From: Norana najaformis
Taxonomy: Eukaryota > Annelida > Clitellata > Crassiclitellata > Hormogastridae
Length of the DNA stretch: 64,000 nucleotides
Reading direction: 5' to 3'
NCBI GenBank assembly: GCA_964023275.1
Contig: OZ029916.1
Span: forward strand, 12,144,607 to 12,208,606
A program made the translations under genes and the position numbers. Of the stretch, positions 1-63,130 are shown piece after piece. Each line of letters starts with the position of its first letter. Within the stretch, counting starts at the first letter, position 1. The notes under the pieces are model-generated. The model was not told the DNA's origin, did no database searches, and saw nothing but the letters and a program-made list of their open reading frames with translations.

Positions 1-27
1 CTGCCTTCCACACGTGCCCTTGCAACA

Positions 28-1255: not shown

Positions 1256-2056
1256 CTAACCAATCCAAACTTTAAATGTCAATACCCCCGAATTACTTAA
1301 CCTAAACCGCAAAGCTCCTCTTACTCTAGGATCAACCCATAAAAACGGTATTCTGGACCAAAGATCAGCGTTTACACCTGTAGGCCGAAACCAAGGATTG
1401 TGTACAAACTTGAGAGGTGTCGGAAAATTTCGACTTGACTGAAACGTTCTTGGCATCATCATACCCGGCCGACCGTGACAGACCGGACGACGACTTTGAC
1501 CCGGCACACGACTGGAAGCAACCACCAGCTCCGGAAATGCACCACTCGAACTGAAGTCGTAATTAGCTGACTCACCAATTGGAGAGAACGGCCGACACGG
1601 ATGACTGCGTGGCTCCGACCGACCAAACCAACGGCATACGACGGAAGAACTGCACGGCACCATCCCTGAAACCGATTCTGACTCGGCGGAAGAATGCCTC
1701 GCTCCACTATCACGTTCCTGCGAGTTCTCGTCCGTTTGAACAACGCACCTTTGTTGCTCTTTCATCGGCTGACCGTCATGACGAATCTCTGTCGAACGAA
1801 TCTGCTCCCGACAACCGTCATTCGGATGAATTTGCTCCCGGCAACCCACACACAGATGAATTTCCTGCGGATGACCCACACACGGCTGAATTTTCGGCGT
1901 ACGAGCATCATCCGGATGAACTTCCTGCGAACGAATTTGCTTCGGACGAGCCTCACTCGGATTAATCTCTCTCGGACGAATTTGCTTCGGATGAGCCTCA
2001 CTCGGATGAATCTCTATCGGACGAATTTGCTTCGGACGAGCCCCCATCTGTTGCAT
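1256..2056 (-). CDS. Repeat-containing ORF of the LTR element, function unknown
   Basis: An open frame of 266 codons runs from an ATG in the last bases of the LTR through the primer site into the internal region. Residues 5-95 are about 18 pentapeptide repeats of the form IRPxE/IHPSE. Residues 96-266 are non-repetitive, with a Ser/Arg/Pro-rich middle and no protease, zinc-knuckle or reverse-transcriptase motif. The repeats alone could keep this frame open. The frame then extends a further 170 codons, which is some support for coding. The upstream position would suit a gag-like protein, but nothing in the sequence proves that. The start inside the LTR is uncertain; the next ATG is three codons further. 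Confidence 0.35.
   Translation of the reverse strand: MQQMGARPKQIRPIEIHPSEAHPKQIRPREINPSEARPKQIRSQEVHPDDARTPKIQPCVGHPQEIHLCVGCREQIHPNDGCREQIRSTEIRHDGQPMKEQQRCVVQTDENSQERDSGARHSSAESESVSGMVPCSSSVVCRWFGRSEPRSHPCRPFSPIGESANYDFSSSGAFPELVVASSRVPGQSRRPVCHGRPGMMMPRTFQSSRNFPTPLKFVHNPWFRPTGVNADLWSRIPFLWVDPRVRGALRFRLSNSGVLTFKVWIG
1772..2041 (-). repeat. 15-nt (pentapeptide) tandem array starting inside the primer binding site
   Basis: About 18 imperfect 15-nt units follow the LTR, with a higher-order 45-nt period in the first three triplets. The unit consensus is close to ATTCGTCCGANNGAG and translates as (I/A)(R/H)Px(E/Q). Several units keep the GCTCGTCCG core of the primer site, so the array looks like an amplified primer-site segment. 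It keeps one reading frame open on both strands. Confidence 0.75.
2033..2046 (-). promoter_or_regulatory. Primer binding site, tRNA-Pro type
   Basis: TGGGGGCTCGTCCG lies two bases after the LTR end on the minus strand. These are the first 14 bases of the 18-nt site complementary to the 3' end of tRNA-Pro. Position 15 onward (AAGC) diverges. The same stretch is the first unit of the 15-nt repeat array that follows. Confidence 0.7.
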
Positions 2057-2412
2057 GCTGGAAAGCGATTAGGCTCGTAGAGGTATAGGCCGAACCAGCA
2101 TACAACGTTCGTTGGTTTAAAACTCTGTATTCTCGAATCCAAAATGGCAACAACAACTTCAACTCAACGAACTTCCTCCAACACGGCAATATATGACCCA
2201 TAACCTTTTCTCACAGCAATATCTCCCAAGAACTTTCCACTCACTCTTTTATACATTCTTCTCTCCCAACGAGACAACCACTCCTTTAAACACTCCCTCA
2301 AACACTCCTTTCAACACAAGTGCATGCGCACATGTTCCTAACCGAATGTTGCATGGGCACGTGTCACCTTCTGACCTAACCCAACCTGCCTTCCACACGT
2401 GCCCTTGCAACA
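2049..2412 (-). repeat. 5' LTR of the short retroelement
   Basis: This 364-bp terminal repeat starts TGTTGCAAGG (minus strand, from 2412) and ends CATGCAACA at 2049. It contains a TATA box at 2246-2253. The outer 66 bases (2347-2412) are themselves an imperfect palindrome, TGTTGCATGGGCACGTG against TGTTGCAAGGGCACGTG. Only the first 27 bases can be compared with the other LTR, and they are identical, which suggests a young or gene-converted copy. Confidence 0.75.
2246..2253 (-). promoter_or_regulatory. TATA box of the LTR promoter
   Basis: TATAAAAG on the minus strand, about 165 bases into the LTR from its 5' edge. The position fits a U3/R promoter. No AATAAA is obvious downstream within the LTR. 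Confidence 0.5.
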
Positions 2413-4296: not shown

Positions 4297-4377
4297 AAAA
4301 AGATTATGATAATCATCTGCCTTGTGATTGCAATTATTGTGATTACACTTATCATTGGACTGTCTGTTGGACGTTAG
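4297..4377 (+). CDS. Last coding exon of a syntaxin-type SNARE (tail anchor)
   Basis: A pyrimidine-rich TTTTAG acceptor at 4291-4296 is followed by 26 codons and TAG. They read KKIMIIICLV at the start and IIGLSVGR at the end, a basic pair followed by one hydrophobic membrane span of about 20 residues. Plasma-membrane syntaxins (syntaxin 1/3/4 type) end with KKIMIII or KKVLIAI plus a tail anchor ending in GG or VG, and in vertebrate genes this segment is the last exon. The role would be C-terminal anchoring of a Q-SNARE in the membrane. The SNARE-motif exons are not visible in the 4.3 kb upstream, so they must lie outside the window to the left. A different tail-anchored protein is possible but less likely. 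Confidence 0.65.
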   Translation, partial: KKIMIIICLVIAIIVITLIIGLSVGR

Positions 4378-24867: not shown

Positions 24868-26953
24868 CCACCCTTGTCACCCTTGTGCTGTCAGCTCTTT
24901 GAGCTCTAGCGACCGTCATGATCAATCTTCTCCATTTCTTTCTTTCCAATGTCGCGTCCCTTAGTTGTGCCAAGTTCATTCCAGTTGCTTCGTGTATCTT
25001 GTTCATCCATTTTTTCCTTGGTCTCCCTTGTTTTCTCTTTCCCTCTCCACAAGCCAGCATCATTTCTTTTTCTAATCCGTCTGATCTCATAACATGTCCA
25101 AAGAACCTCAGCTTTGATTTTAGCACTGTTTGTTGTAACGTCTCATCTTGCTCAATTCCAATCGCCATGCGTACCCATTCATTAGTCCTTTTCTCCGTCC
25201 ATGATGTTCTCAGCATCTTCCTCCGTATCCACATTTCACAAGCATTGATTTTTTTCTCCATTTTCTTGGTCATTGTCCACATCTCACTGCCGTATGTTAC
25301 TGTTGGTATAATCAAGGCCCTCACCAATCTTTTTTTCGTGTCTGTGCTCACATGTTTGTCTTTCCATAATTTTTATAGTCCATTCATTGCTGCTTTTCCA
25401 ATCGCCACCCTTCGATTTATTTCCATATCGCACTTTCCTTCTCTTTCTACTACTGATCCCAAGAATGTAAAGCTGGTTACCGTCTCTAATTCCTCTCCAT
25501 CCACCATAAAACTGCCCTCCTCAGCTGTTGTCATGATCTTCGTTTTCTTTATATTGAAGTATAGTCCTGCTTTCTCGCTCTCTCTCTTCAGCCTTCTTAT
25601 CAGTTCTACCAGATCGGTTTTTTTACCTGCTAATAGTGTTGTGTCATCTGCGTATCTCAGATAATTCAGTGTTCTTCCCGCTATCTTTACTCCCTCATTT
25701 GCCCCATCCATTTCCGCCATCCTCATTATCCTTTCTGCATATAGGTTAAATAGGATTGGGGACAGAATGCATCCCTGCCTCACTCCTTTCTTTATTTTGA
25801 TTCTTTCGGTATCTCCAAGTTCAGTTCTTATTACCGCAATCTGTTCTTCGTACAATCCCTTAAGAAGTTGTATCAAGTGCCTTGGTATTCCCATTTCTAT
25901 TAAGGTTTTCCACATCAACTCAGGATCAATGCAGTCAAATGCCTTACTATAGTCAATGAAGCATATGTATAATTTTTGTCCATACTCCTTTTGTCTCTCC
26001 ATTATCCACCGCATGTTGGCGATATGATCACGAGTTACGCAGGATTTCCTAAATCCTGCTTGGTTATCTGGAAGCTCCCTCTCTATTATGTTCTCCATTC
26101 TTTTATGTATTATTTTAAGTAGTATTTTACTTATGTGCGATATCATTGCTATGGTCCTGTAGTTTTCACTCTCTCGCATCTCCTTTTTTGAATATAGGGA
26201 TAAAGATTGAGCTCTTCCAATCCTCTGGCCATTTTCCGGTTGTCCATATGATATTGCACATTTTTGTTATTGTCTTTGTCATTGCGCCATCTCCTGCTTT
26301 TACCATTTCTATGGGTATCCCATCCAGACCTGGTGCTTTATTGTCCTTCAGTTGTCTAATTGCCCATTCCACCTCTGCTTCCAAAACGTCCGGTTCCTTT
26401 TCATGTTCTGATACATCGATTCGTTCTTTCATTACTCTCCTATCTTCACTGTACAGCTCCTCTGTCTATTCTTTCCATCTGTTCTTCATTCCCTCTTCGT
26501 CTGCGATTATGTGTCCATTCCTTGACCTCAGTGATCCCATTCTTAGTGTGAATTTTCTCGTTATTTCCCTCACTTTTGAAAACATTTCTTTAGTTCTTCC
26601 TTTCTTTCCCTCTTCCTCCATTTCCTTGCACATTGCATTTAGATGTTTTTCTTTGTCTATACGTGCTTGCTTTTGGAATGCTCTATTCATTTCTCGTACC
26701 TTGTTTTTGTCTCCTTCTTTTTTTGCCTCCTTTCTTTCTACAGCTATGTTGATAGCATCCTTCGAGAGCCACGGAGTTGTTGTGGCTTTCTTTTTCTTCG
26801 GAATGTGTTTCTCAGCAGTTTCTAGTATTATTCCCTTCACCTTCTCCCACAGGTTGTTCGTATCCTCATCTATCACCGTCTCGTCCCTCTCTAATATTTC
26901 AAACCTATTCCTTATTTCCATTCTGTATTCCGGTGTAATTCCTTTGCAGTCAT
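24868..26953 (-). mobile_element. RTE-like LINE, young family C, longest copy
   Basis: The 9-bp duplication ACATATTAG at 24859-24867 and 26954-26962 marks the insertion exactly. Minus-strand pieces in order are: linker (26466-26957, EKHIPKKKKATTTPWLSKD), ELEAEVEWAIRQLKDNKAPG-type region (26166-26432), RT core (25373-26179; CFIDYSKAFDCID, GVRQGCILSPILFN, LRYADDTTLL), then thumb and GRPRKKW end (24854-25351). Breaks are few: one stop at NGL*KLW and frameshifts near 26170 and 26440. The endonuclease domain is not present, so it is 5'-truncated. Confidence 0.9.
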
Positions 26954-43824: not shown

Positions 43825-44135
43825 CCCACACGGGAACGCAACGTGTTCGCCCTTCCTCCACACGGGAACGCATGGGAACGCAACGTGTTCGCCTTCCTCT
43901 CACATAAGAATGCAACGTGTTCGCCCTCCTCACGTACGGGAACGCAGCATGTTCGCCCGCATAAGAACGCAACGTGTTCGCCCTTCCCCCGCATGGGAAT
44001 GCAGGATATTCGCCCGCACGGGAACGCAACGTGTTCGTCCTCCTCCCGCATGGGAACGCAACATGTTCGCCCTCCCCCACATGGGAACGCATGGAACGCA
44101 ACGTGTTCGCCCTTCCCCGCACGGGAACACAACGC
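43825..44135 (+). repeat. About ten 32-bp tandem repeats in the LTR U3
   Basis: The unit is close to GGGAACGCAACGTGTTCGCC followed by a variable CCTCCCGCAT-type spacer. The AACGTGTTCG core is seen about ten times with small changes (AACATGTTCG, AGCATGTTCG). Units are 29-42 bases long. The array keeps open frames on both strands, which are not genes. Confidence 0.85.
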
Positions 44136-54528: not shown

Positions 54529-56242
54529 GAGAAATATAACCTACTAAATAACGAGAAAAATTCACACCAAGAATGGGATCAATGAGGTCAAGGGATGGAC
54601 ACATAATCGCAGACGAAGAGGAAATGAAGAACAGATGGAAAGAATACACAGAGGAGCTGTACAGTGAAGATAGGAGAGTAATGAAAGAACGAATCGATAC
54701 ATCAGAACATGAAAAGGAACCGGACGTTTTGGAAGCAGAGGTGGAATGGGCAATTAGACAACTGAAGGACAATAAAGCACCGGGTCCGGATGGGATACCC
54801 ATAGAAATGGTAAAAGCAGGAGATGGCGCAATGACAAAGACAATAACAAAAATGTGCAATATCATATGGACAACCGGAAAATGGCCAGAAGATTGGAAGA
54901 GCTCAATCTTTATCCCTATATTCAAAAAAGGATGCGAGAGAGTGTGAAAACTACAGGACCATAGCAATGATATCGCACATAAGTAAAATACTACTTAAAA
55001 TAATACATAAAAGAATGGAGAACATAATAGAGAGGGAGCTTCCAGATAACCAAGCAGGATTTAGGAAATCCCGCGGAACTCGTGATCATATCGCCAACAT
55101 GCGGTGGATAATGGAGAGACAAAAGGAGTATGGACAAAAATTATACATATGCTTCATTGACTATAGTAAGGCATTCGATTGCATTGATCATGAGTTGATG
55201 TGGAAAACCTTAATAGAAATGGGAATACCAAGGCACTTGATACAACTTCTTAAGGGATTGTACGAAGAACAGATTGCGGTAATAAGAACTGAATTTGGAG
55301 ATACTGAAAGAATCAAAATAAAGAAAGGAGTGAGGCAGGGATGCATTCTGTCCCCATTCCTATTTAACCTATATGCAGAAAGGATAATGAGGATGGCGGA
55401 AATGGATGGAGCAAAAGAGGGAGTAAAGATAGCGGGAAGAACACTGAATAATCTGAGATACGCAGATGACACAACACTATTAGCAGGTAAAAAAACCGAT
55501 CTGGTAGAACTGATAAGAAGGCTGAAGAGAGAGAGCTAGAAAGCAGGACTATACTTCAATATAAAGAAAACGAAGATCATGACAACAGCTGAGGAGGGCA
55601 GTTTTATGGTGGATGGAGAGGAATTAGAGACGGTAACAAGCTTTACATTCTTGGGATCAGTAGTAGAAAGAGAAGGAAAGTGCGATATGGAAATAAACCG
55701 AAGGGTGGCGATTGGAAAAGCCGCAATGAATGGACTAGAAAAAATATGGAAAGACAAACATGTGAGCACAGACACGAAAAAAAGATTGGTGAGGGCCTTG
55801 ATTATACCAACAGTAACATACGGCAGTGAGACGTGGACAATGACCAAGAAAATAGAGAAAAAAATCAATGCTTGTGAAATGTGGATATGGAGGAAGATGC
55901 TGAGAACATCATGGACGGAGAAAAGGACTAATGAATGGGTACGCAGGGCGATTGGAATTGAGCAAGATGAGACGTTACAACAAACAGTGCTAAAATCAAA
56001 GCTGAGGTTCTTTGGACATGTTATGAGATCAGATGGATTGGAAAAAGAAATGATGCTGGCTTGTGGAGAGGGAAAGAGAAAACAAGGGAGACCAAGGAAA
56101 AAATGGATGGACAAGATACACGAAGCAACTGGAATGAACTTGGCACAACTAAGGGACGCGACATTGGAAAGAAAGAAATGGAGAAGATTGATCATGACGG
56201 TCGCTAGAGCTCAAAGAGCTGACAGCACAAGGTGACAAGGTG
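54529..56242 (+). mobile_element. RTE-like LINE, young family C, copy 3 (in akirin intron 1, antisense)
   Basis: ACTAGTAC at 54521-54528 and 56243-56250 is the likely target duplication. Frames: 54573-54947 (KDNKAPGPDGIPIEMVKAG), 54967-55539 (CFIDYSKAFDCIDHELM, GVRQGCILSPFLFNLY, LRYADDTTLL with YADD at 55459-55470), 55579-56235 (FLGSVVEREGKCDM, YGSETWTMTKKIEKK, GRPRKKWMDKI). One frameshift near 54945 and one stop at 55537 interrupt an otherwise intact protein. It is 5'-truncated: no endonuclease. The 3' end is AAGGTGAC repeated. About 18 bases between the duplication and the start of family homology may be filler. Confidence 0.9.
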
Positions 56243-62250: not shown

Positions 62251-63130
62251 AATTTCTGTAATTTCAGGAATCATTACTGCATAATTGTGTTGTTTCTATC
62301 ATTTCAGGAATCATTACTGCATAATTGTGTTGTTTCTATCATTTCAGGAATCATTACTGCATAACTGTGTTGTTTCTATCATTTCAGGAATCATTACTGC
62401 ATAATTGTGTTGTTTCTATCATTTCAGGAATCATTACTGCATAATTGTGTTGTTTCTGTAATTTCATGAATCATTACTGCATAACTGTGTTGTTTCTGTA
62501 ATTTCAGGAATCATTACTGCATAATTGTGTTGTTTCTGTAATTTCAGGAATCATTACTGCATAATTGTGTTGTTTCTGTAATTTCAGGAATCATTACTGC
62601 ATAATTGTGTTGTTTCTGTAATTTCATGAATCATTACTGCATAATTGTGTTGTTTCTGTAATTTCAGGAATCATTACTGCATAATTGTGTTGTTTCTGTA
62701 ATTTCAGGAATCATTACTGCATAATTGTGTTGTTTCTGTAATTTCAGGAATCATTACTGCATAATTGTGTTGTTTCTGTAATTTCAGGAATCATTACTGC
62801 ATAATTGTGTTGTTTCTGTAATTTCAGGAATCATTACTGCATAATTGTGTTGTTTCTGTAATTTCAGGAATCATTACTGCATAATTGTGTTGTTTCTGTA
62901 ATTTCAGGAATCATTACTGCATAATTGTGTTGTTTCTGTAATTTCAGGAATCATTACTGCATAATTGTGTTGTTTCTGTAATTTCAGGAGTCATTACTGC
63001 ATAATTGTGTTGTTTCTGTAATTTCAGGAATCATTACTGCATAATTGTGTTGTTTCTGTAATTTCAGGAATCATTACTGCATAATTGTGTTGTTTCTATA
63101 ATTTCAGTAATCGTTACAGCATAATTTTCT
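62251..63130 (+). repeat. Satellite: 22 copies of a 40-bp unit
   Basis: The unit is ATAATTGTGTTGTTTCTGTA followed by ATTTCAGGAATCATTACTGC. From the TCATTACTGC at 62271 to TCGTTACAGC at 63111 there are exactly 21 steps of 40 bases. The first copies have TTTCTATC in place of TTTCTGTA; a few carry ATAACTG or TTCATGAA; the last is diverged. The high identity suggests recent homogenisation. Confidence 0.97.

What the first reader, a model, noticed from the sequence alone, without database searches (positions are those of the whole stretch)
1772..2046. Primer binding site amplified into a coding pentapeptide array
The tRNA-Pro-like primer site next to the LTR is the first unit of about 18 tandem 15-nt units that share its GCTCGTCCG core. 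The array keeps a frame open as IRPxE-type repeats. A retroelement whose primer site is embedded in, or gave rise to, a repetitive coding array is unusual. Several units might pair with the primer tRNA, and slippage in reverse transcription could be the source.
Basis: partly seen in the sequence, partly recalled or inferred. Interest (0 to 1): 0.72.

Follow-up and report, generated by a model that had tools for sequence, protein, structure and literature searches.

The report
Retroelement primer site inside coding repeats
A small LTR retroelement in an animal-like genome has its tRNA primer site as the first unit of a short-unit repeat array that appears to be part of a protein-coding frame, an unusual layout read here from one copy only.

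Summary
On the minus strand a 364-nt LTR (2412-2049, TG...CA, TATAAAA box) is followed after 2 nt by a primer site identical to the first 14 nt of PBS-Pro (0 of 4 in the last four), then by 17-18 tandem 15-nt units in the same phase. The shared part is a 9-nt core, GCTCGTCCG; permuted primer sites match the array as well in 4 of 16,000 trials. Only unit 1 pairs with the tRNA's 3' end without interruption. The youngest duplication seen, of 45 nt, touches the primer site (42/45 identical). The open frame is probably a real ORF: beyond the array 171 codons have 0 stops against 6-10 in the other five frames, P=0.001, and wobble C is depleted, 21/171 vs 88/342. Inside the array no selection on the pentapeptide is visible. 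Best reading: an LTR element, without detected pol in this copy, whose ORF runs through the primer site as in Ty1 and whose array grew at the primer-site end by frame-preserving duplications. No second copy could be examined, so origin and generality stay open.

The parts
2049..2412 (-). 5' LTR, 364 nt, TG...CA; TATAAAA box starting at 2253; no AATAAA or ATTAAA
   Evidence: first 27 nt repeated at 27-1
2047..2048 (-). 2-nt spacer GA between LTR end and primer site
2033..2046 (-). primer binding site, 14 of 14 to PBS-Pro; the next four positions (2032-2029) match 0 of 4
1771..2040 (-). array of 17 clear and 1 marginal 15-nt units; 45-nt period near the primer site, 30-nt period further out
1951..2040 (-). 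two 45-nt blocks, 42/45 identical: youngest duplication seen, overlapping the end of the primer site
1256..2056 (-). ORF from an ATG in the last 8 nt of the LTR (second ATG at 2047 overlaps the primer site), through the array to a stop at 1258-1256; 266 or 263 aa
28..1255 (-). distal internal region, T/G-rich and C-poor on the sense strand, no sense frame of 100 aa or more
1..27 (-). start of the 3' LTR, cut by the window edge

Best explanation
This is an LTR retroelement on the minus strand, primed by tRNA-Pro and without a detected pol in this copy, so probably moved by another element's proteins. An ORF starts in the last bases of the LTR or on the primer site, runs through it, through an array of 15-nt (5-codon) units and on for 171 more codons. 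The array arose by duplications of whole 15-nt steps (15, 30, 45 nt), which keep the frame. The youngest seen, a 45-nt one, adjoins the primer site, as expected if reverse transcriptase slips or switches between similar units close to where synthesis starts and strands are transferred. Each replication resets the first unit to the tRNA sequence, which is why unit 1 alone is a full primer site. Shown: layout, phase, shared core, duplication pattern, coding signs. Inferred: non-autonomous movement, slippage as the source, resetting by the tRNA, the primer-site region as the seed.
For: LTR end, 2-nt spacer and 14-nt exact primer site. Shared core: 136 of 238 positions in units 2-18 in register; next best of 15 registers 86; permuted primer sites reach 136 in 4 of 16,000 (fixed register) and 4 of 4,000 (best register). 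Adjacent 45-mers from the primer site outward: 42, 34, 28, 17, 17, 14 of 45. Unit 7 equals unit 1 at 15/15; of the 3 differences between units 1-3 and 4-6, one (2037) lies in the stretch that tRNA copying would reset. ORF beyond the array: 0 stops against 7, 10, 6, 6 and 7 in the other five frames; open in 0.1% of 2000 dinucleotide shuffles. Wobble C 21/171 vs 88/342 at the other positions, P=3.7e-4, as strong in 4 of 609 overlapping host windows; in the array 3/91 vs 58/182; no class difference in the distal region.
Against: One copy only. The second LTR is seen for 27 nt. No convincing polypurine tract: only GGGGG stands near the 3' LTR. In register, the units carry neither TGGGG nor GGAT, so a whole 18-nt primer site was not what was duplicated. 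The recalled tRNA-Gln site scores 118 against 136 for Pro in the same register, so the match is not very specific. Outer units compared at lag 30 are up to 23/30 identical, so the 45-nt gradient overstates ageing outward. An ATG at 2201 in another frame lies upstream of the ORF. In overall 3-periodicity the ORF tail is matched or exceeded by 11% of 305 host windows, though by only 1.9% of block shuffles. The tail's lower end was set by its own stop, so P=0.001 is conditional. No relative of the protein was found.
Confidence: 0.55

Rival explanations
1. The array came first as a coding repeat next to the LTR, and one unit happened to match tRNA-Pro well enough to become the primer site; copying from the tRNA then rewrote its first 14 nt (primer switch).
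For: Only the 9-nt core is shared; in register TGGGG and GGAT are absent from the other units, as if TGGGG had been laid over unit 1 alone. The bases after the primer site (AAGC) are those of units 4 and 7.
Against: Nothing shows an earlier primer. It needs the array to lie two bases from the LTR end by accident.
Confidence: 0.25
2. The array is an ordinary short tandem repeat grown by DNA replication slippage after insertion; primer site and ORF play no part.
For: Plain slippage makes such arrays. Within the array 3 of 25 single-base codon differences counted are synonymous (1 of 9 and 2 of 16), about 23% expected, so no constraint on the peptide is visible; column-shuffled arrays keep at least one of six frames open in 84% of trials.
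Against: The wobble-C depletion extends into the array and the frame continues beyond it; neighbouring units differ at up to half their positions or more, so most duplications look old.
Confidence: 0.15
3. The ORF is chance, and the unit is kept as nucleic acid, for example for RNA packaging or as repeated sites for a host zinc-finger repressor of PBS-Pro.
For: The core is conserved at base level. ZFP809 binds PBS-Pro in mouse (PMC4587795, passages).
Against: RNA folding of the array is no better than shuffles (z 0.63; 145 of 200 fold at least as well). Coding signs outside the array. A repressor site should not be favoured in number (inference).
Confidence: 0.05

Closest known systems
Ty1 (yeast LTR retrotransposon)
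   Same: Primer site inside the ORF that starts upstream of it: 53-nt 5' UTR, PBS at nt 95-104, further tRNA-pairing boxes downstream of it (PMC5454406, passages).
   Different: Ty1 uses initiator tRNA-Met, has GAG and POL, and its boxes pair with other parts of the tRNA; no tandem array joined to the primer site is mentioned in the passages seen.
Gammaretrovirus-type elements with PBS-Pro (e.g. MLV)
   Same: LTR, two bases, PBS-Pro (layout recalled; PBS sequence in PMC4587795).
   Different: PBS there is 18 nt and gag starts far downstream of it (recalled). Here 14 nt match and no gag or pol is found.
Non-autonomous LTR elements (TRIM, LARD and similar; recalled)
   Same: LTRs and primer site, no pol detected.
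   Different: Usually without an ORF (recalled); here an ORF of 263-266 aa with a repeat array at the primer site.

Membership tests
LTR retroelement | Direct terminal repeats with TG...CA ends | tested here: inconclusive
   364-nt 5' LTR; only 27 nt of the other LTR lie in the window, 27/27 identical
LTR retroelement | Primer site complementary to a tRNA 3' end next to the 5' LTR | tested here: met
   14 nt exact to PBS-Pro, 2 nt after the LTR
LTR retroelement | Polypurine tract before the 3' LTR | tested here: inconclusive
   only GGGGG
LTR retroelement | Target-site duplication | not testable with these tools
   the other flank lies before position 1
Autonomous retrovirus or retrotransposon | gag/pol domains | tested here: not met
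   no Pfam match for the 270-aa frame, its 171-aa tail or two plus-strand frames; the only other sense frame of 100 aa or more in the element (1459-1761, 100 aa) was not scanned
PBS-Pro gammaretrovirus-type element | 18-nt PBS-Pro | tested here: not met
   14 of 18, last four all different
Ty1-like layout (primer site within ORF) | ORF opens upstream of or on the primer site and continues through it | tested here: met
   ATGs at 2056 and 2047, open to 1256; translation itself untested

The most novel reading that the evidence does not exclude
The primer site is the growing point of a protein: mistakes around tRNA-primed reverse transcription next to the primer site add whole 15-nt blocks, the tRNA re-writes the first block at every round, and the element so builds and edits the N-terminal repeat domain of its own ORF, with part of the protein sequence (MGARP) templated by host tRNA-Pro.
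Probability: 0.2. Interest if true: 0.75.

Novelty: new variant of a known kind. Interest (0 to 1): 0.42.

Why it matters
If other copies confirm it, a step of reverse transcription would be tied directly to the growth of a coding repeat, and the first codons of a protein would be copied from a host tRNA at each replication. Repeat number across copies would then record past errors near the primer site. If copies do not confirm it, this is an ordinary LTR element with a tandem repeat in its leader.

Tried and rejected
Searches for relatives: primer-site 18-mer, 270-aa ORF, array 20-mer and LTR 20-mer in viral contigs gave 0 matches each; this is a collection of viral contigs, not of animal genomes, and the patterns were exact. 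Pfam and solved structures: 0 matches. Rfam at gathering thresholds, whole window: 0. RNA structure of the array: none beyond chance. tRNA genes in the window: 0. Seven paper searches about the layout listed 1, 5, 1, 13, 0, 7 and 0 papers; I saw only titles and the beginnings of abstracts, none of which describes a primer site as unit 1 of a coding array; this is not proof of absence. Considered and held unlikely: that other units serve as ordinary primer sites (the script's label for a paired tRNA end was set by position and marks units 1, 9, 10, 12, 13 and 14, but the printed structures show the last base paired only in units 1, 12 and 14). Suggestive only: the 15 nt at 2055-2041, spanning the LTR end, match a unit at 9/15.

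Full report
What is there. The feature lies on the minus strand. A 364-nt LTR (2412-2049) begins TGTTGCAAGG and ends GCATGCAACA and holds a TATAAAA box starting at 2253. Its first 27 nt recur at 27-1 in the same orientation, 27 of 27 identical, so the element spans from before the window to 2412. Two bases after the LTR end stands TGGGGGCTCGTCCG, identical to the first 14 nt of PBS-Pro; the next four bases match 0 of 4. PBS-Pro was recalled and then seen in a passage of PMC4587795. A 15-nt periodicity follows without a break: 17 clear units and one marginal unit, down to 1771. Matches at lags 15, 30 and 45 total 426 against 184 +/- 12, maximum 240, in 5000 shuffles. The array is real.

Relation of primer site and array. 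With the register fixed by the sequence after the primer site, units 2-18 agree with its 14 nt at 136 of 238 positions; the next best of 15 registers gives 86. Permuting the 14 nt reaches 136 in 4 of 16,000 trials at fixed register and 4 of 4,000 at the best register. Of 13 recalled decoy sites of other tRNAs, the best (Gln) reaches 118 and the other 12 reach 102 or less. The likeness lies in GCTCGTCCG (5-9 of 9 in the 17 units); in register TGGGG is matched at 1-3 of 5, and no unit has GGAT. So the relation is probably not chance, but it covers 9 nt. This fits duplication of the end of the primer site together with what follows it, and fits nearly as well a primer site laid over an existing array.

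Can other units prime? Predicted pairing with the last 18 nt of tRNA-Pro is -33.1 kcal/mol for unit 1, -22.3 for unit 7, -19.7 for unit 14 and weaker for the other 15; 300 shuffled 22-mers gave -9.8 +/- 3.5, strongest -21.4. In unit 7 the tRNA's 3' end is outside the duplex. In units 12 and 14 its last two bases pair, but as a 2-bp tip separated by an interruption from the rest. Unit 1 is the only one with an uninterrupted duplex to the tRNA's end. Ordinary priming from other units is therefore unlikely but not excluded; loose holding of the tRNA by unit 7 is possible, and Ty1 has extra pairing boxes downstream of its primer site (PMC5454406, passages).

How the array grew. Adjacent 45-nt blocks from the primer site outward are identical at 42, 34, 28, 17, 17 and 14 of 45. 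The first pair is clearly the youngest. Further out the period is 30 nt, where 30-nt blocks reach 23/30, so the fall in the 45-nt series overstates ageing outward. What stands is that the youngest duplication touches the primer site.

Is the frame coding? The array alone does not show it: column-shuffled arrays keep at least one of six frames open in 84% of 20,000 trials (the observed sense frame in 34%), one antisense frame is also open, and 3 of 25 single-base codon differences counted are synonymous, about 23% expected. The 171 codons beyond the array do point to it: 0 stops against 7, 10, 6, 6 and 7 in the other frames, open in 0.1% of 2000 dinucleotide shuffles, and wobble C depleted, 21/171 against 88/342, Fisher P=3.7e-4, a depletion reached in 4 of 609 overlapping host windows. 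The rest of the element is C-poor on the sense strand (8.6% C in 28-1255) with no difference between position classes (35/410, 34/409, 37/409), so wobble positions look drifted towards the element's background while first and second positions were held. The array shows the same pattern, 3/91 against 58/182, though its units are not independent. Against: overall 3-periodicity of the tail is equalled or exceeded by 11% of 305 host windows (1.9% of block shuffles). The first ATG of this frame (2056) lies in the last 8 nt of the LTR, the second (2047) overlaps the primer site, and an ATG in another frame lies upstream at 2201. No relative of the protein was found.

Reading. An LTR element without a detected pol in this copy, with an ORF through its primer site and an array that grew at the primer-site end by steps of 15 nt. 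That reverse transcription made the duplications is inferred from their place and from the tRNA-like first unit. The nearest known layout is Ty1, where the primer site lies in GAG; what differs is the tandem array in phase with the primer site. The element itself is of a known kind, so I call it a new variant of a known kind, with moderate interest, because one copy cannot show whether this is a family trait. The genome search that would decide did not complete in 8 of 8 attempts.

Host. Not identified. LINE reverse transcriptases (5 of 9 window frames scanned match RVT_1) and a syntaxin-like C-terminal exon (likeness recalled) suggest an animal, probably vertebrate, genome; this is inference.

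On rereading I softened the statement that no other unit can pair with the tRNA's end (units 12 and 14 pair its last two bases). On rereading I corrected the ORF length to 263-266 aa and the place of the syntaxin-like frame.

Noticed in passing
28-1255: Sense strand of the element's distal region is T 0.45, G 0.27, A 0.20, C 0.09: strong strand asymmetry, as if C (and perhaps A) were lost on the RNA strand; the LTR is also C-poor (0.14).
   Followed up: partly
2347-2412: The first 66 nt of the LTR hold an 18-nt inverted repeat (94%) around 30 nt, each arm with a CACGTG core.
   Followed up: no
1256-2046: CpG observed/expected is 1.47 in the array and 1.21 in the ORF tail against 0.53 for the window: perhaps a young or unmethylated insertion.
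   Followed up: no
62253-63126: Array of about 22 copies of a 40-nt unit, 97% matches.
   Followed up: no
43826-44128: GC-rich array of CACGGGAACGCAACGTGTTCGCCC-type units just upstream of a TATATAA stretch.
   Followed up: no
54847-55539 and 25373-26266: Two LINE reverse-transcriptase frames on opposite strands, closely similar by eye (not aligned).
   Followed up: no
4297-4377: Frame reading KKIMIIICLVIAIIVITLIIGLSVGR then stop, like the C-terminal membrane anchor of a syntaxin (likeness recalled).
   Followed up: no
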